A stretch of DNA of 64,000 bases. It comes from Gracilariopsis chorda. Its lineage: Eukaryota; Rhodophyta; Florideophyceae; Gracilariales; Gracilariaceae. The stretch covers positions 124,001 to 188,000 of the forward strand of contig NBIV01000092.1 in assembly GCA_003194525.1 (NCBI GenBank), given 5' to 3'. The position numbers and the translations under genes were made by a program. Positions 47,926 through 64,000 of the stretch are shown one piece after another (within the stretch, counting starts at the first letter, position 1; each line of letters begins with the position of its first letter). A model generated the notes under the pieces. The model saw only the letters and a program-made list of their open reading frames with translations. It made no database searches and was not told where the DNA came from.

Positions 47926-48509
47926 ATGGCCTCGTCCACAGATCTTCGCAGAACTGTTGGAACAACTGTCAACAGCCGTGCTCGTCTGGTTACAAATAAC
48001 GCTGAATGCAAACGTTATTACGGATCTCTACGGAAGTCAACAACGGTACACGGTTCTGGCCTCAATGTTGACATTCGTAAGATCAACAATCGAAATCTTA
48101 CTTTTCTGACTGTGAAGTTGAGTCTACCGAACCGAGAAAAAGAAGTAACCCTACCTCTATCTATTTTCAAGCTAGGTACCGGTGTTGACGAAGCCTTGAA
48201 TGCTGCAGAAGAGCCTATTACCGAGGTTGAACCCATTAATACGCAAAATGTAGAGGAAGATGCTCTTGTGACCCCATCTCAGATGCAAGTTTTGCAACCG
48301 CAAACAAGTTGATTAAGCGAAAATGTACCTGTCCAATCAACTGTGATTCATGGTCAAGTGTGGGAAACCTGTAGGACGTTGAGTCCTCTGAATGTCTGTA
48401 TGCAAATGCATCAGTGGAAAGTGGTTGGCCCAGCTGGAGATTTTATCTCACCGCGTCACGTTCCTCCAAACATGAGTGCATTAGATTTCTTTCTTTGGAT
48501 GTTCCCTAT
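47926..48509 (+). pseudogene. transposase-like remnant, stop codon inside, cut by LTR
   Basis: From ATG 47926 a frame of 128 codons ends at TGA 48310-48312. The same frame resumes at once and runs to 48509, where the LTR of element A begins. The second part has KVVGPAGDFISPRHVPPNMS then ALDFFLWMFPI, which resembles the start of a PiggyBac-type transposase domain (a P-x-x-x-FF-x-x-FP pattern); this match is weak and from memory. Read as one older coding unit with a nonsense mutation, split by the retrotransposon. The rest of it should lie beyond element A's far end, outside the window. Confidence 0.4.
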
Positions 48510-49333
48510 TGAAGTGCAACGCCCTCAGGGAGTGATTATTGGTACTTGAACGCTTTCCCGATATTATCGGTTGTGTAGTGTGTATATGAACTACGCCCCA
48601 CAATGGTGGATATGGACACGTGGGACACGGTTTTGGATCAATTGGCGGTTGGCCACAGTAGTGGATGTTGCCACGAAATGTGGAGTATTTTAGTTAATAT
48701 TATTTGTTATTTTCACACCCATTTCTGGAAGCTAGTACTTAGTGCGACGGCGCACTGCCGTCGCACCAGTAAACCTTCCCCAACAAGGGACCCCAACCTG
48801 GGGAATTGGTTCTAGTTGTTGCCGCTTGCGCGCGTACTCTACTCCTCCTTGGAGGGAAACGCCGTAAACCACGGGACATCTAACCCCCTTGCACATCTAA
48901 AGAAGCCCATCCTTGGGAGTATAATTGTTCCAATCATATTGGTGTTTCGCCCTGTATAGGGATATTGTTACCGGCATCGCCGTTCGTCCCCGTCGCTCTC
49001 GCGACTCACTCCGTCATTCCTTCCTCCTCTTCGCCCTTCCTTTTTCCCCCTTTTAGGGTAGCACCTCCCGCTATCCGCAGCCCTCGTGTGCGCATCCGCT
49101 CACACACTCCCACTAACGTGGAAACATACCTCTACTGAGGATCACACCCCGCTCACGCAGATACCGATTCTTCGCCTTCACCTCCCTGCGCAAGTCGCGA
49201 CAGGTGTCCCTGGTCTTACAAACCGGCTCCGCCGTGACACCTCTGGGAGGGCTCTACCCAACTGGGTTCACCTCGTGAGAGGAAGATCCCGAACGTCTTT
49301 CGGTGTTTTTCCCCTTTGGGGCATTGCACCACA
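48510..49333 (+). repeat. 5' LTR of element A
   Basis: Begins TGAAGTGCAACG and ends CATTGCACCACA. The termini are TG...CA and form an imperfect inverted repeat (8 of the outer 10 bases). It matches, inverted, the LTR at 53427-54229 over its whole length with scattered substitutions and small indels. It includes short hairpins such as CCCCA-ACC-TGGGG (48791-48803) and a TATAATT near 48917 that could be part of a promoter. Confidence 0.85.
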
Positions 49334-49336
49334 AAG

Positions 49337-49354
49337 TGGTCTCCCGACCTAGAA
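49337..49354 (+). other. primer binding site candidate
   Basis: TGGTCTCCCGACCTAGAA starts 3 nt after the LTR's CA. Its complement ends in ...GGGAGACCA, as a tRNA 3' end would. Which tRNA is not known. Confidence 0.5.
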
Positions 49355-49435
49355 TCGGTTTTTTTCCCTCTTACGAGGTTTGTTTTTATTTATCGGAAGT
49401 TCCGTGATCGTTTCCCGTCGTAACGGTATTTTCTC

Positions 49436-51610
49436 ATGTCGAGAAATCCCTCCGATGCGGAGCCAGTGGTTACGCGTAGTCGCTCCCGCGACAACGCGTA
49501 CACCTCCGAAGTTCGGTTCGTACCCCGTATCCCTATACGGACAAGTTCCAGCCGTACTGGCCCCGCTTCATCGCGGAATGATACTCCCGACCGGGAACCC
49601 CGGAACCTCTTTTTGCCCTCGTTACCACCCCCGCAGGGGAATGCAGCATCGACTCCGGCTGTTGCCGCAGTGCCCCAGGCACCGCGGCCTGCTCCCACTA
49701 TCGCGGCTTCAAGCCCCCGTGGAACGGGCGATAACACCCCCCAGGGGACTTCCCTGGAATCCCAGGTCCGCGCTCTGTGGACCGCCCATGACACCCTTGT
49801 AGGGGAACTAAAATCCCTCCAAGAGGTGGTCTCGGTAACCCCCGTAAAGGAGGTCGCCGAGGAACTCCGTATTTTACGGTCTGACGTCAACTCCATGTTG
49901 GAGAGTTTGGGACAACCCGCCACCTTCATCGAAGGTGTTGAAGCCCGATTAGATCGGATTGGTGCCAGCCTGGAAACGCTGGAGCAGTTCGTCCTCATGG
50001 ACAAACCATCCCCGGATGATCCTGTAAACGAGGCATCGCACAACGACCAGCTTGCTGGGAAGAAGAAACGCCGTCATCGACGGAAACACCACCGAAAATA
50101 TTCGGACTCCGATTGTTCGACATCGTCGGACTCATCCCAAAACCATTCGGTTAGCTCGAGCTCCTCGGACTCCGACTCGGAGGACGAGAAGCGAGGCTAC
50201 TCCTCCCGCTCGAAGTGGTCATCGGCCACTGAAGGTGTGGTCCGAACCCACCAGAAGTGGAGAAGACACCCCGGTCTTCGGGAATTGAAACCGACAAACC
50301 CGGATTACCGGAAGCTTTTATCATACCGGTACTACCGGCTCGAAGACTCGTCACTTGGACGTACGCCCCATGGTACGGGAAAGGTGCGAGAATGCATTAA
50401 GCGAATGCAGCTCTCGCTCCGCAACCAGTATTTTACTGGAGAGGACCCAGTCCTAGTACTGGATTTCCTATCCCGCTTTGTAGCGGAGGCCGATATCCTC
50501 GGTATGAATGAGAGACAAGCCTATTTGGCTTTACCTTATTTCTTACGGGGAATGGCGGAGGACCAATACAACTCTGTCAGAGGATCTTCTCGTGCCTCCG
50601 AGGGAGAAGTTACTTGCTGGCCAGAGGCTGTGCAGTATCTACTGCGCTCCTACGCCACAAACACCGCTATTCAGCAGGCTATCCTCGCTTTGCGAGATAC
50701 ACGCCAGCGTGCTGGAGAGACCGAGACCGACTACTTGGTGCGCCTTAACAAGGCTTTCCACAGATGTGGTAACGTATACCCCGCTGGGAAGCGCAGTACC
50801 ATGTTCATCGATGGCCTTAACCCGGCAATCCGGAGTTTAGTTACCTGTTATCGGGAGGACAAGCGGAGGATCACCTACCTCGAGCTGGTCCAACACGCTC
50901 GAGCGGAAGGGGATGCACTTCGTGCAAGAACTCCGAACAATCGGTCTAAATCCGCCAAGGCATTGTTGCTAGAAAGCGGAGCTTCCTCACTCCCGCTCAC
51001 TGCGGATGGGAACCCTGGACAGGGATTAGATACCGTGCATTTAGTGCAGGAGGATGGTGTGTCGATACCCACCAGTGATTTACCGTCAACGACGGAGATG
51101 ACCCGCGATACGGGAACGGAAGACCCCGTTTTGTACGGTGTTAACAGTCGGATTCAACCCCAACGACTCCCGTTTTCAAACGGTCAATCCCTTTATCAAC
51201 GGCCTGGATGGACTGACACCCGCCCTGCGGTTCGCTTCTCCGATACTCGGAATAATAATCCGCGTGTCGTGGTATTGGCTCTCATTTGCCACCTGTGCTA
51301 TGCCCATGGCCATACCTCACCTCAGTGTATTTGTTCACTGAAGGATATGGCCAAGGTGGTGGCAAATTATGAGGCCCTCACTCCAGAGGAGAAACGTTCC
51401 GTCCCGACGGCTTCCTACCTCCGTGCTAAAACGGACTTTTCCCATGCCCTACCACAGACCCCGCGTGCGCGGCAAGCTTCATACACCCCGATTCGGGAGA
51501 TCACGCAACCATCCGTTGCAACCCCCGCTTATGCGGATAGAAACCCCCGTCAACGGGATGAAGCACTCGTTGTCGAGGAAACCAACCCACCGCCGAAGGC
51601 GGAAAACTAA
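49436..51610 (+). CDS. gag: gag polyprotein of element A
   Basis: 724 residues. Order: a low-complexity Pro/Ala region, a coiled-coil-like segment (LVGELKSLQEVVS, LESLGQPATFIEGVEARLDR), a basic/Ser cluster (KKKRRHRRKHHRKYSDSD, SSSSSDSDSEDEKRGY), the retroviral-like gag core (about 300-490: LRNQYFTGEDPVLVLDFLSR, YLLRSYATNTAIQQAILALR), and one CCHC zinc knuckle, CHLCYAHGHTSPQC, at about 619-632. Gag forms the intracellular virus-like particle and binds the element's RNA. The gag stop (TAA 51608-51610) is followed by pol in the -1 frame; the pol frame is already open for about 45 nt before that stop. The coding sequence is filled with short inverted repeats (see findings). Confidence 0.9.
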   Translation: MSRNPSDAEPVVTRSRSRDNAYTSEVRFVPRIPIRTSSSRTGPASSRNDTPDREPRNLFLPSLPPPQGNAASTPAVAAVPQAPRPAPTIAASSPRGTGDNTPQGTSLESQVRALWTAHDTLVGELKSLQEVVSVTPVKEVAEELRILRSDVNSMLESLGQPATFIEGVEARLDRIGASLETLEQFVLMDKPSPDDPVNEASHNDQLAGKKKRRHRRKHHRKYSDSDCSTSSDSSQNHSVSSSSSDSDSEDEKRGYSSRSKWSSATEGVVRTHQKWRRHPGLRELKPTNPDYRKLLSYRYYRLEDSSLGRTPHGTGKVRECIKRMQLSLRNQYFTGEDPVLVLDFLSRFVAEADILGMNERQAYLALPYFLRGMAEDQYNSVRGSSRASEGEVTCWPEAVQYLLRSYATNTAIQQAILALRDTRQRAGETETDYLVRLNKAFHRCGNVYPAGKRSTMFIDGLNPAIRSLVTCYREDKRRITYLELVQHARAEGDALRARTPNNRSKSAKALLLESGASSLPLTADGNPGQGLDTVHLVQEDGVSIPTSDLPSTTEMTRDTGTEDPVLYGVNSRIQPQRLPFSNGQSLYQRPGWTDTRPAVRFSDTRNNNPRVVVLALICHLCYAHGHTSPQCICSLKDMAKVVANYEALTPEEKRSVPTASYLRAKTDFSHALPQTPRARQASYTPIREITQPSVATPAYADRNPRQRDEALVVEETNPPPKAEN

Positions 51611-51627
51611 CTGAGGCAGTCTCCCCT

Positions 51628-53376
51628 TTGGGAGAGGCGTCCTCAAGAACGAGGCTGTTGGCGCCCGAGGCTTCCTCGCCTCGCTCCCCGGTGAAAGTCC
51701 TCTCGAGGAAAGACACCGCTGACGCGGAATCTGCGCACCTCGGTGTGTTGCGTCGCCCGTGGATACGGAGTAAAAATCCCCGGATTCCCGGTAGAGTCTT
51801 GGTCTTGGCCAAACGCAATTATAAGGTCTATGCCGACCTTGGCCTTGATCCCCAGTTTATGGTGAGGTTTCTCACCGTCCTGGATACAGGTGCAGGCCCC
51901 AACTTGGTTGTGGAATCATTGTTACCCCCGCTTGTGCGGTGGCGTATCCGCTCGGACGCGGTCCCCGACATTTCGGATGCGAACAACAATCCGTTACAAA
52001 CGGTGGGCACAGTGGACCTCGTCGTGAGACTTGGTACCTCTGTGATGAAGTTGGACTTCATCGTTTGCCGTTCATTCGCAGCACCAGTGATACTGGGATG
52101 TGATTACTGCGACAGATTTGTCGACGCAATCAGGCCCCGCCTCAGGCGTGTAGAACTTGACCACGGATCGTCGGTTCCGACTGTTCGCCGCCCGCTAAAG
52201 CGGTCCTCTCGGAAACACGTTCCGCTCCCTGCTGCGCAGGAACCACCGCCCGCGTCCCGCGAGTCCACCAAGCTCCGCGTCGCTGCCTCGGTTTCTATAC
52301 CGGCTGAGTCCCAAGTCTGGGTGCAGGTACATTCCCGTCAACACGGTCTTCGGGTTATACAACCCCTCGCCTCGTTGTACGAGAAATCCCAGCTGGCGCT
52401 GGCTAATGGAATTGTCTCCATTTCCCCGGATGTTCCTTTCCGGATATTGGTTGCCAACCTTGGCAAACACCCCCAGTATCTGGTCAAACACCAAGTAATT
52501 GGGAGTGTAACCCCCCATCCTATGGGAATGCTGCCAACAAAGATGACAGCCGCCGATGTACTCGGAGTTACCACCTCTTCTGAGGAGTTCGCCCCGCCGT
52601 CCGAAGACGTCAAGTCTAAGGAGGGGGAGGAAACCGCTACTTCAGCGTCGAACATACCGAGTAACTCGGAATTGCGAACCACACCTGTTCCACAGGACAA
52701 TGCTCTATCGAGCAACGACCGGATTGATCCGGAAAAAGCACTTGAAGCGCTGGACTTCAGCCACGTGCCAGAGTCGCACCGCGACAAACTCCGTACTATG
52801 TTACGGGAATTCACCACAATGTGGGATGGCTCGCTTGGCGAGATTAATGCAACGGAACACCGGATCGATTTAATCCCCGGTGCGCGACCGGTTGCACAAC
52901 CCCCTTACAGGGCAGGTCCGAAAGCTCGGGAAGAGGAGCAGTCCCAAGTTGAAAAGATGCTCCGCGCAGGTGTGATTGAGCCCGCTCAATCACCCTGGGC
53001 ATCCCCAGTTGTACTGGCTTTAAAGGCCGACGGAACCTGGAGGTTTTATGTCGACTACCGCCGGCGCAATGCCGTGACTGTTAGGGACACGTACCCCATC
53101 CCTCGTATGGACGAGTGCATTGACTCCCTTGGAGACGCCACCGTGTTCACGGCCCTTGATGCCAATTGGGGATATTGGCAAGTACCTGTCAGACAGGAGG
53201 ATCGCGACAAAACCGCATTCACCTGCCATGCAGGAACGTACCGCTTCAAGCGGATGCCATTTGGGTTAACCAACGCCCCCGCCACCTTTCAGCGTGCAGT
53301 AGATATTCTACTCAACCGCTTTAAGTGGCGGAGTTGTCTGGTCTACCTTGATGATATTATCATCTTCTCCAACTAG
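51628..53376 (+). pseudogene. pol: pol of element A, truncated in reverse transcriptase
   Basis: 582 codons to a premature TAG. No ATG is needed if pol is made by -1 frameshifting from gag; the first plausible codons lie around 51610-51630. The aspartic protease motif LDTGAGPNLV is at about residue 85. The RT domain starts near residue 430 (KMLRAGVIEPAQSPWASPVV) and reaches FGLTNAPATFQ and YLDDIIIFS. RNase H and integrase are missing because element B interrupts the frame 50 bp after the stop. The premature stop and the altered RT residues (VDYRRRNA) mark it as inactive. Confidence 0.88.
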
Positions 53377-53426
53377 TTGGACGACCATCTCACTCACGTC
53401 CGAGACGTGCTGACCGTACTCTGCGA

Positions 53427-54229
53427 TGTGGTGCAATGCCCCAAAGGGGAAAAACACCGAAAGACGTTCGGGATCTTCCTCTCACGAGGTGAACCCAGTT
53501 GGGTAGAGCCTCCCAGAGGTGTCACGGCGAAGCCGGTTTGTAAGACCAGGGACACCTGTCGCGACTCGCGCAGGGAGGTGAAGGCGAAGAATCGGTATCC
53601 GCGTGAGCGGGGTTTGATCCTCAGTAGAGGTATGTTTCCACGTGAGTGGGGGTGTGTGAGCGGATGCGCACACGAGGGCCGCGGGTAGCGGGAGGTGCTA
53701 CCCTAAAAAGGAGAAAAAGAAGGGCGAAGTGAGTCGCGAGAGCGACGGGGACGAACGGCGATGCCGGTAACAATATCCCTATACAGGGCGAAACACCAAT
53801 GCAATTGGAACAATTATACTCCCAGTGATGGGTCCCTTTAGATGTGCAAGGGGGTTAGATGTCCCGTGGTTTACGGCGTTTCCCTCCAAGGAGGAGTAGA
53901 GTACGCGCGCAAGCGACAACAACTAGAGCCAATTCCCCAGGTTGGGGTCACTTGTTGGGGAAGGTTTACTGGTGCGACGGCAGTGCGCCGTCGCACTAAG
54001 TACTAGCTTCCCAGAAATGGGTGTGAAAATAATAAATAATATTAACTAAAATACTCCACATTTCGTGGCAACATCCACTACTGTGGCCAACCGCCAATCG
54101 ACCCAAAACCGTGTCCCACGTGTCCACATCCACCATAGTGGGGCGTAGTTCATATACACACTACACAACCGATAATATCGGGAAAGCGTTCAAGTACCCA
54201 GAATCCCTGCCTGAGGGCGTTGCACTTCA
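53427..54229 (-). repeat. 3' LTR of element B
   Basis: On the minus strand it starts TGAAGTGCAACGCC (54229) and ends GCATTGCACCACA (53427). It is flanked internally by a polypurine tract and externally by element A's pol. 803 bp against 824 in A's LTR; the difference is small indels. Confidence 0.87.
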
Positions 54230-54241
54230 TATCCCCCCCTA
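54230..54241 (-). other. polypurine tract of element B
   Basis: On the minus strand TAGGGGGGGATA lies directly before the LTR's first TG. This is the usual position of the plus-strand DNA primer in LTR elements. Confidence 0.7.
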
Positions 54242-54284
54242 AGACGGGAAAACGACCGCGGACGCGGAGGATTTCCAGACGAAA

Positions 54285-55751
54285 ATGGGTGATAAAAGCG
54301 CGTGCTCTGTCTCCGGTTCTCTGGTAAATTCCTCTGCACCAGAGTCCTCAAGTGCACAAACGACAACAACAGCCACCCTCGACAAGGGAGAAATGAACGA
54401 CGACAACAACATCAACAACCACAGCCAACCTCCGAGACTTCTCGGGCGATACACCACCGGTTTCCGGTCAGTTCCCCTGCCTCAGGGCGATCGACATCCG
54501 GTACAACCGCGGAGTATGGCTGCTGCAGCCGACCATCCCTTCGCACTACCACCTTCGGTGGTGTCCTCCGGAACCAATCCGGTGTCCAACTGGCCAACCT
54601 ACAACACCCTGGTGGGGCTCAACCCGATGAATCAGAATCACGCGTCGCGCCTGCGCCTTGCCCCGTGGTTTCACCCGGTCGCTGTCCTCAATGAGGGATT
54701 GGTCACCGCTAATGCGGATGGCTCAGACACCCTTCCGGGAGACCTGCCCAGAGCAGTCACCACATCGTGGGATTGGCGTCACCGGATTGCGATTCCGCGT
54801 CACCACCTCCGAAGAAATTCGGGCGAGACCGTCGCTGCGGCGCACACCGCGTTGACGCGCATGGCATATCAACGGCAGAGCCGGGCTCCATTCGATGTAC
54901 CGGTCCCACCGGAGTTTGGCTTCGACGTTAGCTATTTCCGCACTCGCGGGGAGATTGGGTACGGCGAGAACCTGTTCCGCCTCGAGACCCTCGCTTGGAG
55001 GAATTTCCCCGCAGCGCGGCAAGAAGCCCTTTGCTGGGAGCGACCGACTATTCGGGCGGAGTTCAGGTACCTTCCCCGGCAATACCGGTCCAACTTTCTC
55101 CAAAACTTCATCCGCTACGAGCGGCGTTGGCGATCCCGATTCGGGTATTTTATCCCGTATCAGAACGTGGAGATAGAGCGGATTGCGCCGCCTCACCGAC
55201 TAGGTCGGTATGTAGCACTCCCCGAGTGGTGGCGCTTCCATGAAGCCTGCCGGGGGTGCTACATAGAACTCCCGCCAGTACTTACGTACCTCGGTTCACT
55301 GCTCATGCAGGATCCCCGGTCGGGGTTGTGGTCCGTAGTGGTTACGGAGTGGGCAGCCCGCAGTGCGGCATATATCCTCAACGAGGCGTACGACCAGTAT
55401 CGTCTCTGGTTCCTTCAACAGCGTGTGCGGGCAGCAATCCGAAACCTGGATCTTCGCATCCCCCTTGGGGGCCAGGCCAACAATGAAGAGGTCCTCCAAT
55501 TACTTGGGTACATCGACAGCGTTAGCTGGAGTGAGGTCCCGCTGGAGCAAAGCGGTCGTCTGGATGGCGGTAGCGGTGGTCCGGGACTGGGTAGAAACAC
55601 CGCCCTTGTGGGGGATTTTATCTACTTCGACCCCTGGGAGTTCCGGGAAATTTCCTCCGAGGAGGCGCGCGATCTTCGCGATACGCCCCGGCATGTGCCG
55701 GAAGACCACCCGGTGGGGTACGTCGATTCTGACGACTACTACCGCGCATAA
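54285..55751 (+). CDS. antisense ORF 1 of element B, unknown protein
   Basis: 488 residues on the strand opposite to B's gag and pol, between pol and the 3' LTR; its ATG is 55 bp inside the LTR edge. N-terminal ~90 residues are Ser/Thr/Asn-rich. The centre (about 110-400) is dense, Trp/Tyr/Arg-rich and looks folded (RLRLAPWFHPVAVLNEGLV, FQ-free helices around NFLQNFIRYERRWRSRFGYF, WSVVVTEWAARSAAYILNEA). The end is Gly-rich then acidic (DDYYRA). No transmembrane segment or known domain is recognised. It does not look like a retroviral envelope. Extra antisense ORFs in this position are known in some plant Ty3/gypsy elements (Retand type); whether this one is related cannot be told by eye. An antisense promoter in the 3' LTR would suit its position. 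Confidence 0.6.
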   Translation: MGDKSACSVSGSLVNSSAPESSSAQTTTTATLDKGEMNDDNNINNHSQPPRLLGRYTTGFRSVPLPQGDRHPVQPRSMAAAADHPFALPPSVVSSGTNPVSNWPTYNTLVGLNPMNQNHASRLRLAPWFHPVAVLNEGLVTANADGSDTLPGDLPRAVTTSWDWRHRIAIPRHHLRRNSGETVAAAHTALTRMAYQRQSRAPFDVPVPPEFGFDVSYFRTRGEIGYGENLFRLETLAWRNFPAARQEALCWERPTIRAEFRYLPRQYRSNFLQNFIRYERRWRSRFGYFIPYQNVEIERIAPPHRLGRYVALPEWWRFHEACRGCYIELPPVLTYLGSLLMQDPRSGLWSVVVTEWAARSAAYILNEAYDQYRLWFLQQRVRAAIRNLDLRIPLGGQANNEEVLQLLGYIDSVSWSEVPLEQSGRLDGGSGGPGLGRNTALVGDFIYFDPWEFREISSEEARDLRDTPRHVPEDHPVGYVDSDDYYRA

Positions 55752-55766
55752 GGCGGGGATGACCCA

Positions 55767-56063
55767 ATGGTCGATAACGAACCGGAAGAACCCGGGGAGA
55801 TGGACGTAGAGGAGACCGGCGCTAGCGCGGAAGCTTTCCCAGAGGGGGTCTCTCCGGCCGAGCCGGCTGCTGACCCTTCGGCGGCAAGTGCAGGACTTTC
55901 TATCCCCAGCGGGGTGACGGCGAATGAAAACGAAATCATTGCACGTTTCCTCCGGGGTGCCGGTCTTAGCGCTGCCGAGGTATCGGGGGATGTCACCACC
56001 ATGGCGGACGCGTTGGCCTACCGCCTTGCTGGGGGTTACGCCCCGGACGATGGGGGTGAGTGA
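55767..56063 (+). CDS. antisense ORF 2 of element B, small acidic protein
   Basis: 98 residues, starting 15 bp after the stop of antisense ORF 1, in another frame. Very acidic N-terminus (DNEPEEPGEMDVEETG), then an Ala/Pro stretch and a helical end (ENEIIARFLRGAGLSAAEV, TTMADALAYRLAGGY). An AATAAA lies downstream at 56151-56156, fitting the end of a plus-strand transcript. The two ORFs could be one protein if joined by an intron or frameshift; I see no clear splice sites. Function unknown. Confidence 0.5.
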   Translation: MVDNEPEEPGEMDVEETGASAEAFPEGVSPAEPAADPSAASAGLSIPSGVTANENEIIARFLRGAGLSAAEVSGDVTTMADALAYRLAGGYAPDDGGE

Positions 56064-56150
56064 AACCTCTAGTCCAGTTTCCTGGTTCTTCTTTCCCTGG
56101 CTATGCCAGTTAGTGTAGTGTAGTATTGTGGGGAGGTAGCTGCTCCCTTG

Positions 56151-56156
56151 AATAAA
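56151..56156 (+). terminator. polyadenylation signal candidate for the antisense ORFs
   Basis: AATAAA about 90 bp after the stop of antisense ORF 2 and about 100 bp before the stop of pol on the other strand. The two transcription units converge here. Confidence 0.45.
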
Positions 56157-56254
56157 CATTCCCGTTTAGAACGGTGCTTCTCGGTTGAGTTCCCCGTCTT
56201 CGACGGACCTTGTCTTGTTATCCTTTCCTTTCGCTCTCCGCTCGCGCGGCAACG

Positions 56255-58636
56255 TTACCCAACTTGGGCATTAACCAGCATGGCTGGGGCTGCAGTTCCC
56301 GTTTGATGGTGGTATCGCAGGACCTGCGACCGTGGGAGGTGTTCAATTGGCTCCCACGTATCCCCACTGGGGTCGTACCCGTACCAGCGGACGCGGTATT
56401 GTAGAATACCATCCTGGTCCCAGGTGTGTCCGACAAGTCGGTCTACTACGAACTCTTGTTCGTAGACCTGCCGGCTGTGCCGGGTGGTGGTTGTACTTCC
56501 TTGCGGGGGCTGCCCGCTGTGCGGTATAATGTCCCTTAGCAGGGTGTTCGGCGATAACTCTGGCGTTGCCGTGCGCTGTGATAGCGGCCGCTGCTCATGC
56601 GGGAAGATATCCCTCAAGAGGGTGTGTGGTGCCACGGTTTTCACCGGCAAGTCATTCCCCATTGGGGTAGGTTCATTTCTGCTTTCGCGGTATTGCGGGC
56701 GAACCGCCAGTCGGCGGGGGACTTGGGCTCCGCCTTCGCGGTTGAGCTCACGAACCGCGAGTTTACGGGAAGATGACCGTTCCTGTGGGATCGGCATTTC
56801 CACAATCCCCTGGGAGGTCCCGTGCGACACGGTGATTGGGTGGCAAACCGCCTCCCTGCCAGGCGCACGAGCGCTCTGCACCATACGTTCCGGCGATGCC
56901 GTGGTGTCCCCGGCTACTGACGGGTTGCCTGGGGCTAACTCCGGTACACCGGTATTTTGGTCAAAATTCCCCTTTGGGTGGTGCCGGGCAGGTGCCGATG
57001 ATACCCTTTTCAGGGGAATTGCCGCTAAGCGCGGTGCACCATCTCCATGAGGAGGAGCAGCGTCCGGTACGACCGGTTTCGAGCGTGCGATGGCGCGCGT
57101 TATTCCCGAGTTCCTCGGTTCTTCGCCGCAGCGATGCGGGGGTTGGCGCAAATTATTCCCCGTAGCGGGGGCTTCGATTCCGTCAACGACGGGAGGCGTT
57201 TCCAGTGCGTGCGAGCCAGGGCTTAAAGCTTCAACTGCGGCTTGGCTGCCTTTTTCCCCAAGAGGGGTATGGGTATTTCCCTGTGAGCCCGGCGTATCTG
57301 GGCGCCCCTTCTCCACAAGGCGCGTGTCTGATCGACCTGATGGAACCGCTTCCGCGGGGACTTCCGCCAACGGCGGCTTAGAAGCATCGCCCTGCTCAGG
57401 GGATTGGGGGCAATCGTCACCATACTCCCTTATCGGGGATCCTTCCCTGACAGGGGTGTGCGGTAGTTGCGTTTCAACTTCCCGTGTAGCACGGTATGTT
57501 TTCGGCGTTTGTGACGATGCCTCAGGGGATGGATTGGGCGATTGCCTTTCTACTGCTGCAGTATTGGAGTGAGGCTTCTCGTTTTCCCGTGACAAACGGT
57601 GTATTTGCCGCTTTTGCGGGGCCTGCGCGTCTGGTTCCTGTTGCACAGCACTGCCCGGGAACGGGGGATTAGTGTCGCGTGACATACTCCGTGCTCCACG
57701 GTCAGTGTTCCGTATGTTACGGTGTGTTTCCCGTTGCGACGGCGATATCGTTCCTCGAAAACCAGTGTTCTCCTTCCCCTCCTTAGACGGAGCGGCGGGA
57801 TAAGGGATAACATTCCCCGCCTGGCGGGTATAGATGCGCGCCAGTGGGGCAAACGTGGTAGGGGCGGGCGCTGAGGGCCCCGAATTACCCGGCTGAGCCG
57901 GTGAGTCCGACAGAGTCGGTAGGTCTGAGAGTCCCCGGCTGGGGGTTGGTAGTACCGTAGGTCTAGTACTCCCGGATGGTTCCGGTGTTGCAGAGTCCGT
58001 AGAAACGGGGTTGCCTGGATCCAGGACTACCTCTGACGAGGGAGGAGGGGCAAGTACAACACGATCACGGGAAATCCGTTCGTGCGTGTCGCCCATCTCT
58101 ACCACGACAGTGTCGGTGTTAACAGAGATGACCTTGAAGGGCCCATCCGCCACAGGCGAGAGTTTGTGACGCTTCTCCCGTTCCGGGTTGTAGTACTCCT
58201 TCCTGATGAAGACGTAGTTATTTGCCCGAATCGGGGGGGTCTTTCCTCGCAAGCGAGCGTCAAAATTCCGCTTGTAAGCGGCTTGGGCCCGTGCCATAGA
58301 CTTCGGCGCAGCGGGGACCAGCTTGGAAAGCCATTGCTTCCATTCCTGCCGGTAGATACCCACAGATGGGAAATTGTCCAAGGTAGCTTGTGGTTCCAGC
58401 GCCACAGGCGGGGGTGTTCTAGATAGAACCAACTCGAATGGCGAAACTGCGGTAGTCCGGTGTACCTGCGTATTGTACGCGTAGGTCATCGCATCAGCGT
58501 AGAGATCCCAATTCGTTGGGTGGTCAGTGACGTAGGAACGTAACGCCGCGAGTAACGTCCGGTTAAACCGTTCAACTTGCCCATTACACTGGGGGTGGTA
58601 GGTAGTCGTGAACAAGTTCTTGACAGGAGGCGACAA
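56255..58636 (-). CDS. pol: pol C-terminal part of element B: integrase end, linker, chromodomain
   Basis: About 790 codons in a frame shifted by one base from the upstream pol frame; there is no ATG at the top. It continues integrase: FTTTYHPQCNGQVERFNRT contains the catalytic Glu, followed by a GPF module (KLSPVADGPFKVISVNTDTV) to about residue 210. Then come roughly 500 residues of Pro/Ser/Thr/Arg-rich, unstructured linker. Near the end (about 725-780, nt 56300-56465) is a chromodomain: EFVVDRLVGHTWDQDGILQY, then RVRWYGYDPSGDTWEP. Chromodomains in this position direct integration toward particular chromatin in chromoviruses. The linker is far longer than usual. Confidence 0.85.
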   Translation of the reverse strand: MSPPVKNLFTTTYHPQCNGQVERFNRTLLAALRSYVTDHPTNWDLYADAMTYAYNTQVHRTTAVSPFELVLSRTPPPVALEPQATLDNFPSVGIYRQEWKQWLSKLVPAAPKSMARAQAAYKRNFDARLRGKTPPIRANNYVFIRKEYYNPEREKRHKLSPVADGPFKVISVNTDTVVVEMGDTHERISRDRVVLAPPPSSEVVLDPGNPVSTDSATPEPSGSTRPTVLPTPSRGLSDLPTLSDSPAQPGNSGPSAPAPTTFAPLARIYTRQAGNVIPYPAAPSKEGKENTGFRGTISPSQRETHRNIRNTDRGARSMSRDTNPPFPGSAVQQEPDAQAPQKRQIHRLSRENEKPHSNTAAVERQSPNPSPEASSQTPKTYRATREVETQLPHTPVREGSPIREYGDDCPQSPEQGDASKPPLAEVPAEAVPSGRSDTRLVEKGRPDTPGSQGNTHTPLGEKGSQAAVEALSPGSHALETPPVVDGIEAPATGNNLRQPPHRCGEEPRNSGITRAIARSKPVVPDAAPPHGDGAPRLAAIPLKRVSSAPARHHPKGNFDQNTGVPELAPGNPSVAGDTTASPERMVQSARAPGREAVCHPITVSHGTSQGIVEMPIPQERSSSRKLAVRELNREGGAQVPRRLAVRPQYRESRNEPTPMGNDLPVKTVAPHTLLRDIFPHEQRPLSQRTATPELSPNTLLRDIIPHSGQPPQGSTTTTRHSRQVYEQEFVVDRLVGHTWDQDGILQYRVRWYGYDPSGDTWEPIEHLPRSQVLRYHHQTGTAAPAMLVNAQVG

Positions 58637-61600
58637 ACATCCTGGAAGAACTTGCTCACCAACTGCCTCCCGTTGTCGGAGAGCACCTCCACAGGGGGAC
58701 CGTAGACAAAAATCCAGTGCGTCACCAGAGCCTGGGCCACCGTGAGAGCGGTTATCCTCCGAAGAGGGACAGTCCGTACCAGCTTAGAAAAGCGGTCGGT
58801 GATGACAAGTAGAAACTTGTTTCCACGTTTTGTGGTGAGTAGTGGTCCGAGAAGATCAATTGCGATAAACTCGAGTGGCGCCCTTGCGGGGAATAGTTTC
58901 ATCTTCTTCGCATTTTTGCGGAGCTTGACGCGATTCTTCGCGCATTGGCTACAAAACCGCACAGTTGCGTAGCAATCCACCGCCATTGCGGGCCAATAGA
59001 AATCCCTTCGCAGGGTTAGGTAGAGTTTCCTTCCACCTGGGTGACCTCCAATGGGGGCGTAGTGTGATAGATGTAACACCCGCGATTGCAGGGAATGTGG
59101 TACCACAATCTGTGGGCGGGCTTCGACCTTTCTTACGAGGTAGCCTTTGTCGTTTACTCCGAAAGGGAGATCTTCACCACCGTTGATACGGGCACGAATT
59201 CTCGTACAGAATGGGTCGCCGAATTGTTCTCGGATCATTTCTTCCGGTGATACCGGTACAAAGTTTCCCGGTAACGGGTTCTCAGATATATCTCGCGATG
59301 CGACTAGTTCGTCAAAATCAGCATCCTCGTCCCAGGTTTCTGGCCTAGCCTCGACGGCATATTCCGGATCATCCGGGTCTATAGCCATGAAGCATGGGAC
59401 TTCATCATCCTCCGTTGGGAGTGCTTCCCCACTTGTGGGTAACCGCGATAAAGCGTCGGCCTGGGTGTTCTGCGCACCCTTTTTATAAATGACTTGAAAG
59501 TCATATTCCGCGAGGCGGAGTCTCCAGCGCATGAGGCGTCCCGACGGGTCGGAGATATTCATCAACCACCTCAATAAGGAATGATCCGTGTACATGGTGA
59601 AGTGAATTCCCATAAGGTAGGGGCGCAAAGTGGTCATCGCCCATACGACGGCGAGGCACTCTTTCTCCGATACGGAGTAGTTCCGCTCATGAACATTGAG
59701 CGAACGTGACCAATAACCAATTGGATGTCGTTCCCCCTCGGGGGTGGTTTGAAAAAGAGCACACCCGACTTGGTAGTCGCTCGAGTCCGTATCTACGGAG
59801 TATGGCAACCCAAGTTTTGGGAGATGTAGGATTGGTGCTGATGTGACAGCCTCCTTTAAGGAGTTAAAAGCTTCTGATTGCTCGGGCGTAAATGTTCCCA
59901 GTTTTGGGGGGTATCCCTTTCGCAACAACGCGTTCAGGGGCGCTGCAGTATCCGAAAAGTTCGGGATAAACCGTCGATAGACGTTGACCAGCCCCAGAAA
60001 GGAGCGCAGTTCCGTTTGAGTACGGGGTTCTTTCGCCTCAACGAGGGATTTGACTCGAGCTTTCTCGATCGCTACCCGTCCAGGACGGATAATGTGACCC
60101 AGATACTTCACAGTATCTGTGAAAAACTCGCATTTCGTCAACTTGAGGGTAATTCCCGCATCGCGGTGTACGGTCAGCACGTCTCGGACGTGAGTGAGAA
60201 GGTCGTCCAACGAGTTGGAGAAGATGATAATATCATCAAGGTAGACCAGACAGCTCCGCCACTTAAAGCGGTTGAGTAGAATATCTACTGCAGGCTGAAA
60301 GGTGGCGGGGGCGTTGGTCAACCCAAATGGCATCCGTTTGAAGCGGTACGTTTCTGTATAGCAGGTGAATGCGGTTTTGTCGCGATCCTCCTGTCTGACA
60401 GGTACTTGCCAATATCCCCAATTGGCATCAAGGGCCGTGAACACGGTGGCGTCTCCAAGGGAGTCAATGCACTCGTCCATACGAGGGATGGGGTACGTGT
60501 CCCTAACAGTCACGGCATTGAGCCGGCGGTAGTCGACACAGAACCTCCAGGTTCCGTCGGCCTTTAAAGCCAGTACAAATGGGGATGCCCAGGGTGATTG
60601 AGCGGGCTCAATCACACCTGCGCGGAGCATCTTGTCCACTTGGGACTGCTCCTCTTCCCGAGCTTTCGGACCTGCCCTGTAAGGGGGTTGTGCAACCGGT
60701 CGCGCACCGGGGATTAAATCGATCCGGTGTTCCGTTGCATTAATCTCGCCAAGCGAGCCATCCCACATTGTGGTGAATTCCCGTAACATAGTACGGAGTT
60801 TGTCGCGGTGCGACTCTGGCACGTGGCTGAAGTCCAGCGCTTCAAGTGCTTTTTCCGGATCAATCCGGTCGTTGCTCGATAGAGCATTGTCCTGTGGAAC
60901 AGGTGTGGTTCGCAATTCCGAGTTACTCGGTATGTTCGACGCTGAAGTAGCGGTTTCCTCCCCCTCCTTAGACTTGACGTCTTCGGACGGCGGGGCGAAC
61001 TCCTCAGAAGAGGTGGTAACTCCGAGTACATCGGCGGCTGTCATCTTTGTTGGCAGCATTCCCATAGGATGGGGGGTTACACTCCCAATTACTTGGTGTT
61101 TGACCAGATACTGGGGGTGTTTGCCAAGGTTGGCAACCAATATCCGGAAAGGAACATCCGGGGAAATGGAGACAATTCCATTAGCCAGCGCCAGCTGGGA
61201 TTTCTCGTACAACGAGGCGAGGGGTTGTATAACCCGAAGACCGTGTTGACGGGAATGTACCTGCACCCAGACTTGGGACTCAGCCGGTATAGAAACCGAG
61301 GCAGCGACGCGGAGCTTGGTGGACTCGCGGGACGCGGGCGGTGGTTCCTGCGCAGCAGGGAGCGGAACGTGTTTCCGAGAGGACCGCTTTAGCGGGCGGC
61401 GAACAGTCGGAACCGACGATCCGTGGTAAAGTTCTACACGCCTGAGGCGGGGCCTGATTGCGTCGACAAATCTGTCGCAGTAATCACATCCCAGTATCAC
61501 TGGTGCTGCGAATGAACGGCAAACGATGAAGTCCAACTTCATCACAGAGGTACCAAGTCTCACGACGAGGTCCACTGTGCCCACCGTTTGTAACGGATTG

Positions 61601-61959
61601 TTGTTCGCATCCGAAATGTCGGGGACCGCGTCCGAGCGGATACGCCACCGCACAAGCGGGGGTAACAATGATTCCACAACCAAGTTGGGGCCTGCACCTG
61701 TATCCAGGACGGTGAGAAACCTCACCATAAACTGGGGATCAAGGCCAAGGTCGGCATAGACCTTATAATTGCGTTTGGCCAAGACCAAGACTCTACCGGG
61801 AATCCGGGGATTTTTACTCCGTATCCACGGGCGACGCAACACACCGAGGTGCGCAGATTCCGCGTCAGCGGTGTCTTTCCTCGAGAGGACTTTCACCGGG
61901 GAGCGAGGCGAGGAAGCCTCGGGCGCCAACAGCCTCGTTCTTGAGGACGCCTCTCCCAA
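58486..61959 (-). CDS. pol: pol of element B: protease, RT, RNase H, integrase
   Basis: 1157 codons. Aspartic protease LDTGAGPNLV at about residue 85. RT about 430-600, with RFCVDYRRLNAVTV, FGLTNAPATFQ and YLDDIIIFS intact. RNase H about 720-850, with YSVDTDSSDYQVGCALF, SEKECLAVVWA, TDHSLLRW and ADALSRLP. Integrase zinc region HLSHYAPIGGHPGG...FCSQC near 970-1010; core starts with IDLLGPL and SDNGRQ. The frame fails after VCRLLS near 58630, and the next 150 nt in this frame are nonsense while the correct integrase continues in the neighbouring frame. So this copy has a small indel. Pol is in the -1 frame relative to gag, as in A, and lacks its own ATG. Confidence 0.9.
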   Translation of the reverse strand: MGEASSRTRLLAPEASSPRSPVKVLSRKDTADAESAHLGVLRRPWIRSKNPRIPGRVLVLAKRNYKVYADLGLDPQFMVRFLTVLDTGAGPNLVVESLLPPLVRWRIRSDAVPDISDANNNPLQTVGTVDLVVRLGTSVMKLDFIVCRSFAAPVILGCDYCDRFVDAIRPRLRRVELYHGSSVPTVRRPLKRSSRKHVPLPAAQEPPPASRESTKLRVAASVSIPAESQVWVQVHSRQHGLRVIQPLASLYEKSQLALANGIVSISPDVPFRILVANLGKHPQYLVKHQVIGSVTPHPMGMLPTKMTAADVLGVTTSSEEFAPPSEDVKSKEGEETATSASNIPSNSELRTTPVPQDNALSSNDRIDPEKALEALDFSHVPESHRDKLRTMLREFTTMWDGSLGEINATEHRIDLIPGARPVAQPPYRAGPKAREEEQSQVDKMLRAGVIEPAQSPWASPFVLALKADGTWRFCVDYRRLNAVTVRDTYPIPRMDECIDSLGDATVFTALDANWGYWQVPVRQEDRDKTAFTCYTETYRFKRMPFGLTNAPATFQPAVDILLNRFKWRSCLVYLDDIIIFSNSLDDLLTHVRDVLTVHRDAGITLKLTKCEFFTDTVKYLGHIIRPGRVAIEKARVKSLVEAKEPRTQTELRSFLGLVNVYRRFIPNFSDTAAPLNALLRKGYPPKLGTFTPEQSEAFNSLKEAVTSAPILHLPKLGLPYSVDTDSSDYQVGCALFQTTPEGERHPIGYWSRSLNVHERNYSVSEKECLAVVWAMTTLRPYLMGIHFTMYTDHSLLRWLMNISDPSGRLMRWRLRLAEYDFQVIYKKGAQNTQADALSRLPTSGEALPTEDDEVPCFMAIDPDDPEYAVEARPETWDEDADFDELVASRDISENPLPGNFVPVSPEEMIREQFGDPFCTRIRARINGGEDLPFGVNDKGYLVRKVEARPQIVVPHSLQSRVLHLSHYAPIGGHPGGRKLYLTLRRDFYWPAMAVDCYATVRFCSQCAKNRVKLRKNAKKMKLFPARAPLEFIAIDLLGPLLTTKRGNKFLLVITDRFSKLVRTVPLRRITALTVAQALVTHWIFVYGPPVEVLSDNGRQLVSKFFQDVCRLLSRTCSRLPTTPSVMGKLNGLTGRYSRRYVPTSLTTQRIGISTLMR

Positions 61960-61976
61960 AGGGGAGACTGCCTCAG

Positions 61977-64000
61977 TTAGTTTTCCGCCTTCGGCGGTGG
62001 GTTGGTTTCCTCGACAACGAGTGCTTCATCCCGTTGACGGGGGTTTCTATCCGCATAAGCGGGGGTTGCAACGGATGGTTGCGTGATCTCCCGAATCGGG
62101 GTGTATGAAGCTTGCCGCGCACGCGGGGTCTGTGGTAGGGCATGGGAAAAGTCCGTTTTAGCACGGAGGTAGGAAGCCGTCGGGACGGAACGTTTCTCCT
62201 CTGGAGTGAGGGCCTCATAATTTGCCACCACCTTGGCCATATCCTTCAGTGAACAAATACACTGAGGTGAGGTATGGCCATGGGCATAGCACAGGTGGCA
62301 AATGAGAGCCAATACCACGACACGCGGATTATTATTCCGAGTATCGGAGAAGCGAACCGCAGGGCGGGTGTCAGTCCATCCAGGCCGTTGATAAAGGGAT
62401 TGACCGTTTGAAAACGGGAGTCGTTGGGGTTGAACCCGACGGTTACCACTGTACAAAACGGGGTCTTCCGTTCCCGTATCACGGGTCATCTGCGTCGTTG
62501 ACGGCAAATCACTGGTGGGTATCGACACACCATCCCCCTGCACTAAATGCACGGTATCAAATCCCTGTCCAGGGTTCCCATCCGCGGTGAGCGGGAGAGA
62601 GGAAGCTTCGCTTTCCAGCAACAATGCCTGGGCCGATTTAGACCGATTGTTCGGAGTTCTTGCACGAAGTGCATCCCCTTCCGCTCGAGCGTGTTGGACC
62701 AGCTCGAGGTAGGTGATCCTCCGCTTGTCCTCCCGATAACGGGTAACTAAACTCCGGATTGCCGGGTCAAGACCATCGATGAACATGATACTGCGCTCCC
62801 CAGCGGGGTATACGTTACCACATCTGTGGAAAGCCTTGTTAAGGCGCACCGAGTAATTGGTCTCGGTCTCTCCAGCACGCTGGCGTGTATCTCGCAAAGC
62901 GAGGATAGCCTGCTGAATAGCGGTGTTGGTGGCGTAGGAGCGCAGTAGATACTGCACAGCCTCCGGCCAGCAAGTAACTCCTCCCTCGGAGCCGCGAGAA
63001 GATCCTCTGACAGAGGTGTATTGGTCCTCCGCCACTCCCCGTAAGAAATACGGTAAAGCCAAATAGGCTTGTCCCTCATTCATACCGAGGATATCGGCCT
63101 CCGCTACAAAGCGGGATAGGAAATCCAGTACTAGGACTGGGTCTTCTCCAGTAAAATACTGGTTGCGGAGCGAGAGCTGCATTCGCTTAATGCATTCTCG
63201 CACCTTTCCCGTACCACGGGGCGTACGTCCAAGTGACGAATCTTCGAGCCGGTAGTACCGGTATGATAAAAGCTTCCGGTAATCCGGGTTTGTCGGTTTC
63301 AATTCCCGGAGACCGGGGTGTCTTCTCCCCTTCTGGCGGGTTCGGACCACACCTTCAGTGGCCGATGACCGCTTCCAGCGGGAGGAGTAGCCTCGCTTCT
63401 CGTCCTCCGAGTCGGAGTCCGAGGAGCTCGAGCTAACCGAATGGTTTCGGGATGAGTCCGATGATGTCGAAGAATCGGAGTCCGAATATTTTCGGTGGTG
63501 TTTCCGTCGATGACGGCGTTTCTTCTTCCCAGCAAGCTGGTCGTTGTGCGATGCCTCGTTTACCGGATCACCCGGGGATGGTTTGTCCATGAGTACGAAC
63601 TGCTCTAGCGTCTCCAGGCGGGGACCAATCCGATCAAATCGGGCTTCAACTCCTTCGATGAAGGTGGCGGGTTGTCCCAAACTCTCCAACACGGAGTTGA
63701 CGTCAGACCGTAAAATACGGAGTTCCTCGGTGACCTCCTTTACGGGGGTTGCCGAGACCACCTCTTGGAGGGATTTTAGTTCCCCTACAAGGGTGTCATG
63801 GGCGGTCCACAGAGCGTGGACCTGGGATTCCAGGGAAGTCCCCTGGGGGGTGTTATCGCCCGTTCCACGGGGGCTTGAAGCCGCGACAGCGGGAGCAGGC
63901 CGGGGTGCCTGGGGCACTGCGGCAACAGCCGGAGTCGATGCTGTATTCCCCTGCGGGGGTGATAACGAGGGCAAAAGGAGGTTCCGGGGTTTCCGGTCGG
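61977..64000 (-). CDS. gag: gag of element B, 5' end outside window
   Basis: About 674 codons visible, open to the window edge in the same frame as element A's gag (D-R-K-P-R-N at the edge matches A's D-R-E-P-R-N). It retains the coiled-coil segment, basic/Ser cluster, gag core and the CHLCYAHGHTSPQC zinc knuckle. Differences from A are scattered substitutions, without frame breaks in the visible part. By alignment with A, roughly the first 50 residues lie beyond the window. Confidence 0.9.
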   Translation of the reverse strand, partial: DRKPRNLLLPSLSPPQGNTASTPAVAAVPQAPRPAPAVAASSPRGTGDNTPQGTSLESQVHALWTAHDTLVGELKSLQEVVSATPVKEVTEELRILRSDVNSVLESLGQPATFIEGVEARFDRIGPRLETLEQFVLMDKPSPGDPVNEASHNDQLAGKKKRRHRRKHHRKYSDSDSSTSSDSSRNHSVSSSSSDSDSEDEKRGYSSRWKRSSATEGVVRTRQKGRRHPGLRELKPTNPDYRKLLSYRYYRLEDSSLGRTPRGTGKVRECIKRMQLSLRNQYFTGEDPVLVLDFLSRFVAEADILGMNEGQAYLALPYFLRGVAEDQYTSVRGSSRGSEGGVTCWPEAVQYLLRSYATNTAIQQAILALRDTRQRAGETETNYSVRLNKAFHRCGNVYPAGERSIMFIDGLDPAIRSLVTRYREDKRRITYLELVQHARAEGDALRARTPNNRSKSAQALLLESEASSLPLTADGNPGQGFDTVHLVQGDGVSIPTSDLPSTTQMTRDTGTEDPVLYSGNRRVQPQRLPFSNGQSLYQRPGWTDTRPAVRFSDTRNNNPRVVVLALICHLCYAHGHTSPQCICSLKDMAKVVANYEALTPEEKRSVPTASYLRAKTDFSHALPQTPRARQASYTPIREITQPSVATPAYADRNPRQRDEALVVEETNPPPKAEN

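What the first reader, a model, noticed from the sequence alone, without database searches (positions are those of the whole stretch)
48510..64000. Both retrotransposons are tiled with short perfect inverted repeats, even through conserved codons
Reading element A and B I repeatedly meet arms of 4-7 bp around loops of 1-5 nt, mostly of the form CCNNN...NNNGG. Example cluster in gag: CCGTA-TTT-TACGG (49867-49879), CTCCA-TGT-TGGAG (49891-49903), CACCTTC-ATC-GAAGGTG (49921-49937), CCGAT-TAG-ATCGG (49945-49957), that is one per 24-30 nt. The conserved RT has CTCC-CTT-GGAG (53124), CCGTG-TT-CACGG (53141) and CCTGT-CAG-ACAGG (53185). The linker has CCGAG-TTC-CTCGG (57106), CCGCA-GCGA-TGCGG (57126), CCCCG-TAG-CGGGG (57158), CCGTC-AAC-GACGG (57180). 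The antisense ORF has CCCTG-CCT-CAGGG (54475) and ACCACC-TTC-GGTGGT (54548). Random expectation for 5-bp arms with such loops is roughly one per 200 nt. Host genes nearby do not show it by eye. Possible causes: template switching by reverse transcriptase that perfects quasi-palindromes, selection for RNA structure, or a nucleic-acid binding code.
Basis: seen in the sequence. Interest (0 to 1): 0.9.

Follow-up and report, generated by a model that had tools for sequence, protein, structure and literature searches.

The report
Retrotransposons tiled with selected mini-hairpins
A group of jumping genes in a red seaweed carries hundreds of tiny, perfectly matched hairpins along its length, through its protein-coding parts too, and natural selection appears to keep them there, perhaps so that something can recognise the element's RNA.

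Summary
Inverted repeats (arm >=5, loop <=5) run at 19.6/kb in 48510-64000 against 5.4/kb in shuffles and 5.6/kb in the rest of the window; the excess survives shuffles keeping protein, codons and dinucleotides. It is one device: perfect hairpins 11-14 nt long, mostly based on 5'-CC...GG-3'. CC-stems occur at 20/kb in the elements and 0.6/kb in host DNA, with a sharp edge; equally stable GG..CC stems are near chance. Six families of this red alga share it, and so does a distant relative from another sample, without the base preference; nine more distant Ty3-like loci and five host genes do not. Between families, doubly changed pairs stay complementary in 150/337 cells against 17-30% in controls. 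Synonymous variants shared among copies avoid breaking hairpins (8, expected 22); private ones do not (43, expected 41). So selection, not copying error, most likely maintains them. Function is unproven; my best guess is dispersed Gag-binding (packaging) hairpins on the genomic RNA, though folding predictions support an RNA reading only weakly.

The parts
48510..53426 (+). Element A, 5' part (LTR, gag, start of pol), hairpin-tiled: 103 inverted repeats (20.9/kb), 98 CC..GG stems (19.9/kb); interrupted here by element B
48510..49333 (+). 5' LTR of element A; tiled (17 CC..GG stems, 0 GG..CC stems)
49436..51610 (+). gag ORF of A, 724 aa (zinc-knuckle motif CX2CX4HX4C at residue 618; basic region judged by eye); 49 inverted repeats, z 9.5 against protein+dinucleotide-preserving shuffles
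51628..53376 (+). start of pol ORF of A with reverse transcriptase (PF00078), cut by B
53427..64000 (-). Element B, 3' part; its 5' LTR ends about 1,060 bases beyond the window; nested in A with a 5-bp target-site duplication differing at one base (read by eye); 201 inverted repeats (19.0/kb), 220 CC..GG stems (20.8/kb)
53427..54229 (-). 3' LTR of B; 20 CC..GG stems, 0 GG..CC stems
54285..55751 (+). antisense ORF (488 aa) between pol and 3' LTR of B; similar to proteins of other families and other Gracilariaceae; tiled (27 inverted repeats, z 5.4)
56255..58636 (-). ORF of B with C-terminal chromodomain (PF00385); 44 inverted repeats, z 6.8
58486..61959 (-). pol ORF of B: RT, RNase H, integrase domains; 66 inverted repeats, z 9.9
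61977..63974 (-). gag ORF of B (part), in the stretch 98% identical to A
49867..49957 (.). four quoted hairpins in gag (49867-49879, 49891-49903, 49921-49937, 49945-49957)
53124..53197 (.). three quoted hairpins in the RT (53124-53134, 53141-53152, 53185-53197)
54475..54562 (.). two quoted hairpins in the antisense ORF (54475-54487, 54548-54562)
57106..57192 (.). four quoted hairpins in the chromodomain ORF of B (57106-57118, 57126-57139, 57158-57170, 57180-57192)

Best explanation
A clade of Ty3/chromovirus LTR retrotransposons is under selection to keep a dense series of perfect Watson-Crick mini-hairpins (mostly 5 bp with a loop of about 3 nt, outer span 11-14 nt, roughly one per 50-76 nt) along the element: LTRs, gag, pol and the antisense gene, in all codon phases. 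In the Gracilariopsis lineage the base of the stem usually also reads 5'-CC...GG-3' (C at the second pair in family 3). SHOWN here: excess over protein-preserving shuffles, fixed geometry, base polarity, compensatory evolution between families, avoidance of hairpin loss at synonymous sites in variants that spread, absence from more distant elements tested. INFERRED: the hairpins act in the element's own genomic RNA as many weak, dispersed binding sites for the element's Gag (a capsid protein with a zinc knuckle), marking that RNA for packaging into virus-like particles and ordering it there. They would thus work like the dispersed packaging signals of single-stranded RNA viruses. I give about 0.9 to selected pairing, about 0.6 to action as RNA, and about 0.4 to Gag packaging.
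For: Excess and geometry. Polarity over spans 11-14, count/shuffle in six families: CC..GG 229/21.9, 175/16.3, 51/11.8, 91/13.1, 69/8.3, 58/5.2; GG..CC 28/19.5, 18/18.7, 17/10.7, 14/11.5, 7/7.4, 7/6.9. Pairing itself is the target: 4-fold sites are near saturation (identity 0.26-0.41), yet pairs with both sides changed are Watson-Crick in 150 of 337 cells, against 17-30% at 18 slid partner positions. For example the hairpin over YSVSE changes by compensating synonymous pairs among four families; that over YRFKR likewise, with one amino-acid change in family 2. Selection in spreading copies: shared synonymous variants break 8 hairpins against 22.0 +- 4.0 expected (0 of 300 resamplings as low), private synonymous ones 43 against 41.4. 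Clade: the 6 tiled and 8 untiled labelled rows lie on opposite sides of a 100/99 branch. LTRs and all ORFs are tiled. Flanks differ by strand and by family (fam1 3' A, fam2 3' C and 5' T, fam3 3' T), as a single-strand reader would give; in family 1 the 3' A also holds in its LTR and antisense-ORF regions (12 A against 3 mirrored T, and 12 against 5). Linkers of 0-2 nt are rarer and of 6-8 nt commoner than under random placement in families 1, 2 and 4. Gag relatives match Retrotrans_gag in 16 of 31 and a zinc-knuckle model in a few; three of four family Gags show the knuckle motif.
Against: No Gag-RNA binding was tested. G-U pairs are not favoured over other mismatches: internal single-mismatch stems occur near chance (GU 61/57.4, AC 89/65.6, other 248/246.4). 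That is odd for RNA. Predicted pairing probability of the stems in 300-nt RNA is about that of chance stems in host DNA. Folding-energy excess is modest in three families (3.5-6.3%; 11.1% in family 1) and does not differ between strands; two untiled elements have 7.7% and 13.6%. Flank asymmetry differs between families, is weak in families 4-6 and is not seen in family 2's antisense region (6 A against 7 mirrored T). Loops carry no shared motif. The base code is not uniform: stems starting CG, CT and CA are also enriched, family 3 favours TC..GA and AC..GT as much as CC..GG and has GC..GC at three times chance, and L062 has no polarity.
Confidence: 0.4

Rival explanations
1. Selected RNA hairpins that serve protection rather than packaging: they hide the element's RNA from host small-RNA or nuclease defence, or steer translation or export, with no Gag contact.
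For: Pairing is selected along the element. Dense genome-wide structure is known in RNA viruses; in the FMDV paper (passages read) the nonstructural regions have a folding-energy excess of 10.9%, near family 1's 11.1% (200-nt windows here, 400-nt there).
Against: Masking should accept any stable stem, yet GG..CC stems are near chance in six families while CC..GG is 4-11 times enriched. Predicted pairing is about that of chance stems. The stems are only about 5 bp.
Confidence: 0.2
2. The hairpins act in DNA: as folded single-stranded cDNA during reverse transcription, or as cruciforms in the integrated copy, read by integrase, the chromodomain protein or a host factor.
For: Strict Watson-Crick pairing without G-U tolerance. 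Folding-energy excess is the same on both strands. A CC..GG palindrome is its own reverse complement, so polarity does not need one strand.
Against: Flanking bases are strand-asymmetric in families 1, 2 and 3 after stratifying by codon phase. Cruciforms of 11-14 nt would be very small (general knowledge). Resident copies lose hairpins as expected at random (private synonymous variants 43 against 41.4), so an effect in resident copies is not what is selected.
Confidence: 0.2
3. Mutational drive: the element's reverse transcriptase switches template at quasi-palindromes and copies one arm into the other, perfecting hairpins without selection.
For: Strict Watson-Crick stems, with one-mismatch stems near chance. 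Restriction to one RT clade. Repair of broken arms could also explain the lack of shared losses.
Against: No clear excess of hairpin gains in private or shared synonymous variants (5 against 7.7; 5 against 4.2). Gains between close copies mostly take one substitution: 63 of 70 over ten partly overlapping comparisons, where fixing several mismatches at once would be expected more often; compensated pairs in shared hairpins number 2 in those ten. Polarity leaves out GG..CC. Related RTs go with different base and flank preferences.
Confidence: 0.1
4. Composition, codon bias or a repeated unit produces the excess by chance.
For: The elements are GC-richer than most of the rest of the window.
Against: Dinucleotide and protein+codon+dinucleotide shuffles; untiled Ty3 families and host genes at the chance level; inner triplets are diverse; no consistent codon phase.
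Confidence: 0.01

Closest known systems
Dispersed packaging signals of ssRNA viruses (PS-mediated assembly: MS2, parechovirus, HBV pregenome; PMC6281560, passages read)
   Same: Many stem-loops spread through coding sequence, varied sequences around a shared recognition feature; that review itself speculates about Gag-like proteins.
   Different: The MS2 signal in that review is recognised through loop and bulge bases. Here loops show no motif, the stem base is the constant part, geometry is near-uniform, density is about one per 50-76 nt, and the carrier is an LTR retrotransposon. No binding is shown.
Genome-scale ordered RNA structure (GORS) of positive-strand RNA viruses (FMDV paper PMC8386395, passages read)
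   Same: Genome-wide base pairing maintained through codons, with individual stem-loops differing between lineages while overall structure persists.
   Different: GORS is seen as a folding-energy excess of varied structures. Here the energy excess is modest and not strand-specific, but one tiny hairpin shape with base polarity is strongly over-represented.
Ty3/gypsy chromoviruses (chromodomain LTR retrotransposons)
   Same: LTRs, gag, RT, RNase H, integrase, chromodomain.
   Different: Hairpin tiling, and an antisense gene between pol and the 3' LTR in at least families 1 and 2; three untiled Ty3 loci of the same genome lack the tiling.
Quasi-palindrome correction by template switching (recalled)
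   Same: Yields perfect Watson-Crick inverted repeats.
   Different: No polarity is expected and gains should often be multi-base; neither fits.

Membership tests
Ty3/gypsy chromovirus | RT, RNase H, integrase and chromodomain | tested here: met
   PF00078, PF17917/PF17919, PF17921, PF00385 over cut-off; rve just under its cut-off (32.0 against 32.6)
Ty3/gypsy chromovirus | LTRs and target-site duplication | tested here: met
   LTR copies 48510-49333 and 53427-54229; B's LTR ends and a 5-bp duplication with one mismatch, read by eye
Dispersed packaging signals | Many dispersed stem-loops conserved beyond protein coding | tested here: met
   that they lie in the packaged RNA is inferred from tiling of LTRs and all ORFs
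Dispersed packaging signals | A shared recognition motif | tested here: inconclusive
   CC..GG stems enriched in six of six Gracilariopsis families and the strongest class in five; in family 3 TC..GA and AC..GT are as strong; no preference in L062; no loop motif
Dispersed packaging signals | Binding by the capsid protein and an effect on assembly | not testable with these tools
   needs binding and particle assays
GORS | Folding energy well below dinucleotide shuffles across the genome | tested here: inconclusive
   excess 11.1, 6.3, 5.9, 3.5% (families 1-4), 11.7% (L062), host 0.1%; untiled L041 0.3%, L063 7.7%, L065 13.6%
GORS | Structure on the genomic strand rather than its complement | tested here: not met
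   sense minus antisense excess -0.5 to 1.9 in families 1-4 and L062, each within two standard errors of zero
Template-switch quasi-palindromes | Excess of new variants that perfect hairpins | tested here: not met
   private variants: gains 5 of 180 synonymous (expected 7.7) and 17 of 400 nonsynonymous (expected 19.7)

The most novel reading that the evidence does not exclude
A new kind of dispersed cis-element: a structural code of uniform perfect mini-hairpins written over an entire LTR retrotransposon and read by a lineage-specific partner that checks both pairing and, in these red-algal elements, the polarity and identity of the stem base. Individual hairpins turn over, so the density of the code is what is selected. 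It is shared by much of a chromovirus clade across hosts and co-evolves with its reader, whether in RNA or in cDNA.
Probability: 0.35. Interest if true: 0.95.

Novelty: new variant of a known kind. Interest (0 to 1): 0.85.

Why it matters
LTR retrotransposons make up much of many eukaryotic genomes, but how their RNA is told apart from host mRNA and packed is known in few systems (general knowledge). Here the sequence itself shows an element-wide, selected hairpin code with internal controls: untiled families in the same genome, equally stable stems of the wrong polarity, and private against shared variants. The packaging-signal question for retroelements becomes directly testable with short RNA oligonucleotides and one protein. 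It also warns that silent sites in such elements are not neutral, so silent-site dating and dN/dS on them would be biased.

Tried and rejected
Composition and codon bias: rejected by shuffles. Mutational drive: disfavoured. Purely thermodynamic selection: disfavoured by polarity and by pairing probabilities about equal to chance stems. A repeated hairpin unit: rejected by diverse inner triplets.

Results against my reading or unclear. The gain of 16 hairpins (expected 5.9) from L042 to L040, and of 12 (expected 4.7) from L046 to L055, looked like positive selection, but decay of the first copy explains them equally. In the same call B and A against L039 lose 25 and 24 hairpins (expected 29.3 and 32.4), near or mildly below chance. 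Private nonsynonymous variants break more hairpins than expected (116 against 87.7 +- 8.3), unexplained. Two counts of private variants differ: 865 (29 copies, multiple alignment) and 580 (31 copies, pairwise alignment to one copy). The shared-variant result points the same way in both (19 losses against 31.0; 23 against 40.5). One search counted substitution types per comparison before the pooled test. Loop composition flips between the antisense-ORF regions of families 1 and 2; treated as noise. The shared-centre excess between families was not controlled for conserved amino acids. L060 is not in the RT tree and L062 fills a third of its columns.

Searches that led nowhere: four viral-contig scans gave no confirmed relative; profiles of Gag and of the antisense protein found no convincing solved structure; no Pfam model reached its cut-off for the antisense protein of the window, and none matched its relatives below E 0.07.

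Papers: ten searches showed no report of hairpin-tiled retrotransposons; several lists were capped at 10-12 of many papers, and most subscription journals are not held. Only passages of two papers were read; the rest were seen as listings and abstract starts.


Full report
WHERE IT IS. The window is C92:124001-188000 of a 91.3-Mb eukaryotic assembly. An antisense-ORF relative, P0122, is annotated as BWQ96_03215 of the red alga Gracilariopsis chorda, on a contig of 445,473 bases. Contig C30 of this genome is 445,473 bases long and encodes residues 1-491 of P0122 at 100% identity (its last residues were not listed there). I therefore take the host to be G. chorda (inference). The two elements are chromodomain Ty3 retrotransposons. 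B (minus strand) is inserted in A (plus strand): A stops at about 53426, B starts at 53427, and beyond the window A's pol resumes right after B's 5' LTR, with a 5-bp duplication that differs at one base (duplication read by eye).

13 of 13 quoted repeats are in place. Inverted repeats with arm >=5 and loop <=5: 304 in 15,491 nt against 84.1 +- 10.0 in shuffles; rest of the window 270 in 48,509 nt against 249.8 +- 14.1. With protein, codon use and dinucleotides held, the seven ORFs examined of this family (three from copy L039, four from the window) have z 5.1 to 14.5, three ORFs of family 3 have z 4.1 to 10.4, an untiled Ty3 ORF (L041) has 0.3, and five host CDS have -1.1 to 0.8.

IT IS ONE DEVICE. 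By loop size the excess lies at constant outer span: 12-13 nt above all, 11-14 in all. The 5' arm mostly begins CC and the 3' arm ends GG. CC..GG stems (two further pairs inside) run at 20/kb in A and B and 0.6/kb in the 48.5 kb of host DNA; from 48001 the 500-base bins read 0, 11, 9, 15. At spans 12-13 CC..GG stems are about 9-23 times the shuffle level in families 1, 2 and 4 and 5-6 times in family 3; GG..CC stems there are 0.4-2.4 times on small counts. Over spans 11-14 GG..CC is 0.9-1.6 times in six families. Stems starting CG, CT or CA are also enriched, and in family 3 TC..GA, AC..GT and GC..GC too. Nearest-neighbour stacking treats CC/GG and GG/CC alike (established knowledge), so stability alone cannot be the target. 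Hairpins show no consistent codon phase, and fill LTRs and the antisense ORF at the same CC-stem density. Stems with one internal mismatch are near chance, G-U included, while perfect ones are 862 against 126.

WHO HAS IT. Of 20 Ty3 loci compared (some overlap one another), 17 are tiled (ratio 2.0-4.5) and fall into four families; three (L041, L047, L054; 33-41% identical to the tiled ones) are not (0.95-1.19). Two more families, L060 and L061, are tiled (2.84, 3.68). A scan of the prokaryote genome collection returned seven contigs with Ty3-like matches, presumably eukaryotic DNA in MAGs (inference). One, L062 (48% identical in its best segment of pol), is tiled: 59 repeats against 21.1, ratio 2.8; 22 of 35 maximal stems of span 12-14 are at span 13; ORF z 3.8 and 6.3. 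It has no CC..GG preference (CC..GG 14/5.4, GG..CC 18/5.1). The other six have ratios 0.93-1.32. In an RT tree of 31 rows the 6 labelled tiled rows and the 8 labelled untiled rows lie on opposite sides of a 100/99 branch; 17 rows carry no label because only proteins were available; L060 had no RT in the piece held; L062 fills a third of the columns. So the hairpin shape looks older than the base preference (inference).

SELECTION, NOT COPYING. Families 1-4 are near saturation at 4-fold sites (identity 0.26-0.41). Yet 3-10 hairpins per pair of families share a centre (0.5-1.6 expected under random rotation, not controlled for conserved amino acids). Where both partners of a hairpin pair changed, 150 of 337 cells are still Watson-Crick, against 17-30% when the partner column is slid by 1-9 (ordered comparisons, so each pair of families counts twice). 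Within family 1 (31 copies), private synonymous variants break 43 hairpins (of 180; expected 41.4) while shared synonymous ones break 8 (of 98; expected 22.0 +- 4.0; none of 300 resamplings as low); Fisher p 0.001. Nonsynonymous: 116 of 400 private against 15 of 93 shared, p 0.013 (expectation matched for base change, synonymy and CpG). The three smaller sets have too few shared variants to test alone (18, 10 and 4; losses 0, 0, 0 against 2.2, 1.0, 0.5). Hairpins thus seem to be kept in lineages that transpose and to decay in resident copies.

HOW IT PROBABLY WORKS. The selected object is pairing within 11-14 nt over the element, plus base identity at the stem base in this host's families. Codon phase, gene and coding strand do not matter, and individual hairpins turn over. 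That fits a reader that needs many equivalent sites on the element's nucleic acid. The natural reader is Gag: 16 of 31 Gag relatives match Retrotrans_gag and three of the four family Gags show a CX2CX4HX4C knuckle. I therefore favour dispersed packaging or assembly sites on the genomic RNA (0.4). Against it: G-U is not favoured, the stems are not predicted to pair better than chance stems, energy excess does not differ between strands, and loops have no motif. Strand-asymmetric, family-specific flanks lean to a single-strand reader. The DNA-level and protection readings stay open.

COMPARISON. It works like dispersed packaging signals or GORS but meets only part of each definition (membership table). 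My ten paper searches (listed under Tried and rejected) did not show this feature in retrotransposons.

Noticed in passing
window 54285-55751 (+); L057: Antisense gene between pol and the 3' LTR: 38-64% identical to the family 2 copy and to Gracilariopsis, Gracilaria and metagenome proteins, with open frames of about 609 aa in many genomic copies. No Pfam or convincing PDB match. A conserved antisense accessory protein in chromoviruses deserves its own study.
   Followed up: partly
window 53422-53436; L069: Element B is nested in element A, with a 5-bp target-site duplication differing at one base (read by eye).
   Followed up: yes
L062-L068: Ty3-like elements sit in contigs filed under bacterial or archaeal MAGs, probably eukaryotic contamination.
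   Followed up: partly
L065: A distant Ty3 element with inverted-repeat ratio 1.32, folding-energy excess 13.6% and a mild excess of GG..CC stems (12 against 3.7); perhaps a different structural habit.
   Followed up: no
window 32001-48000: Mild inverted-repeat excess (ratio 1.28-1.32 at arm >=5, two 8-kb bins) without an excess of CC..GG stems.
   Followed up: no
L039, L056/L002/L057, L042, L058/L046/L059: Pol is split in two overlapping or adjacent frames in families 1 and 2 but is one long ORF in families 3 and 4.
   Followed up: no
family 1 copies L010-L039, window A and B: Private nonsynonymous variants hit hairpins more often than expected (116 against 87.7 +- 8.3), unexplained.
   Followed up: no
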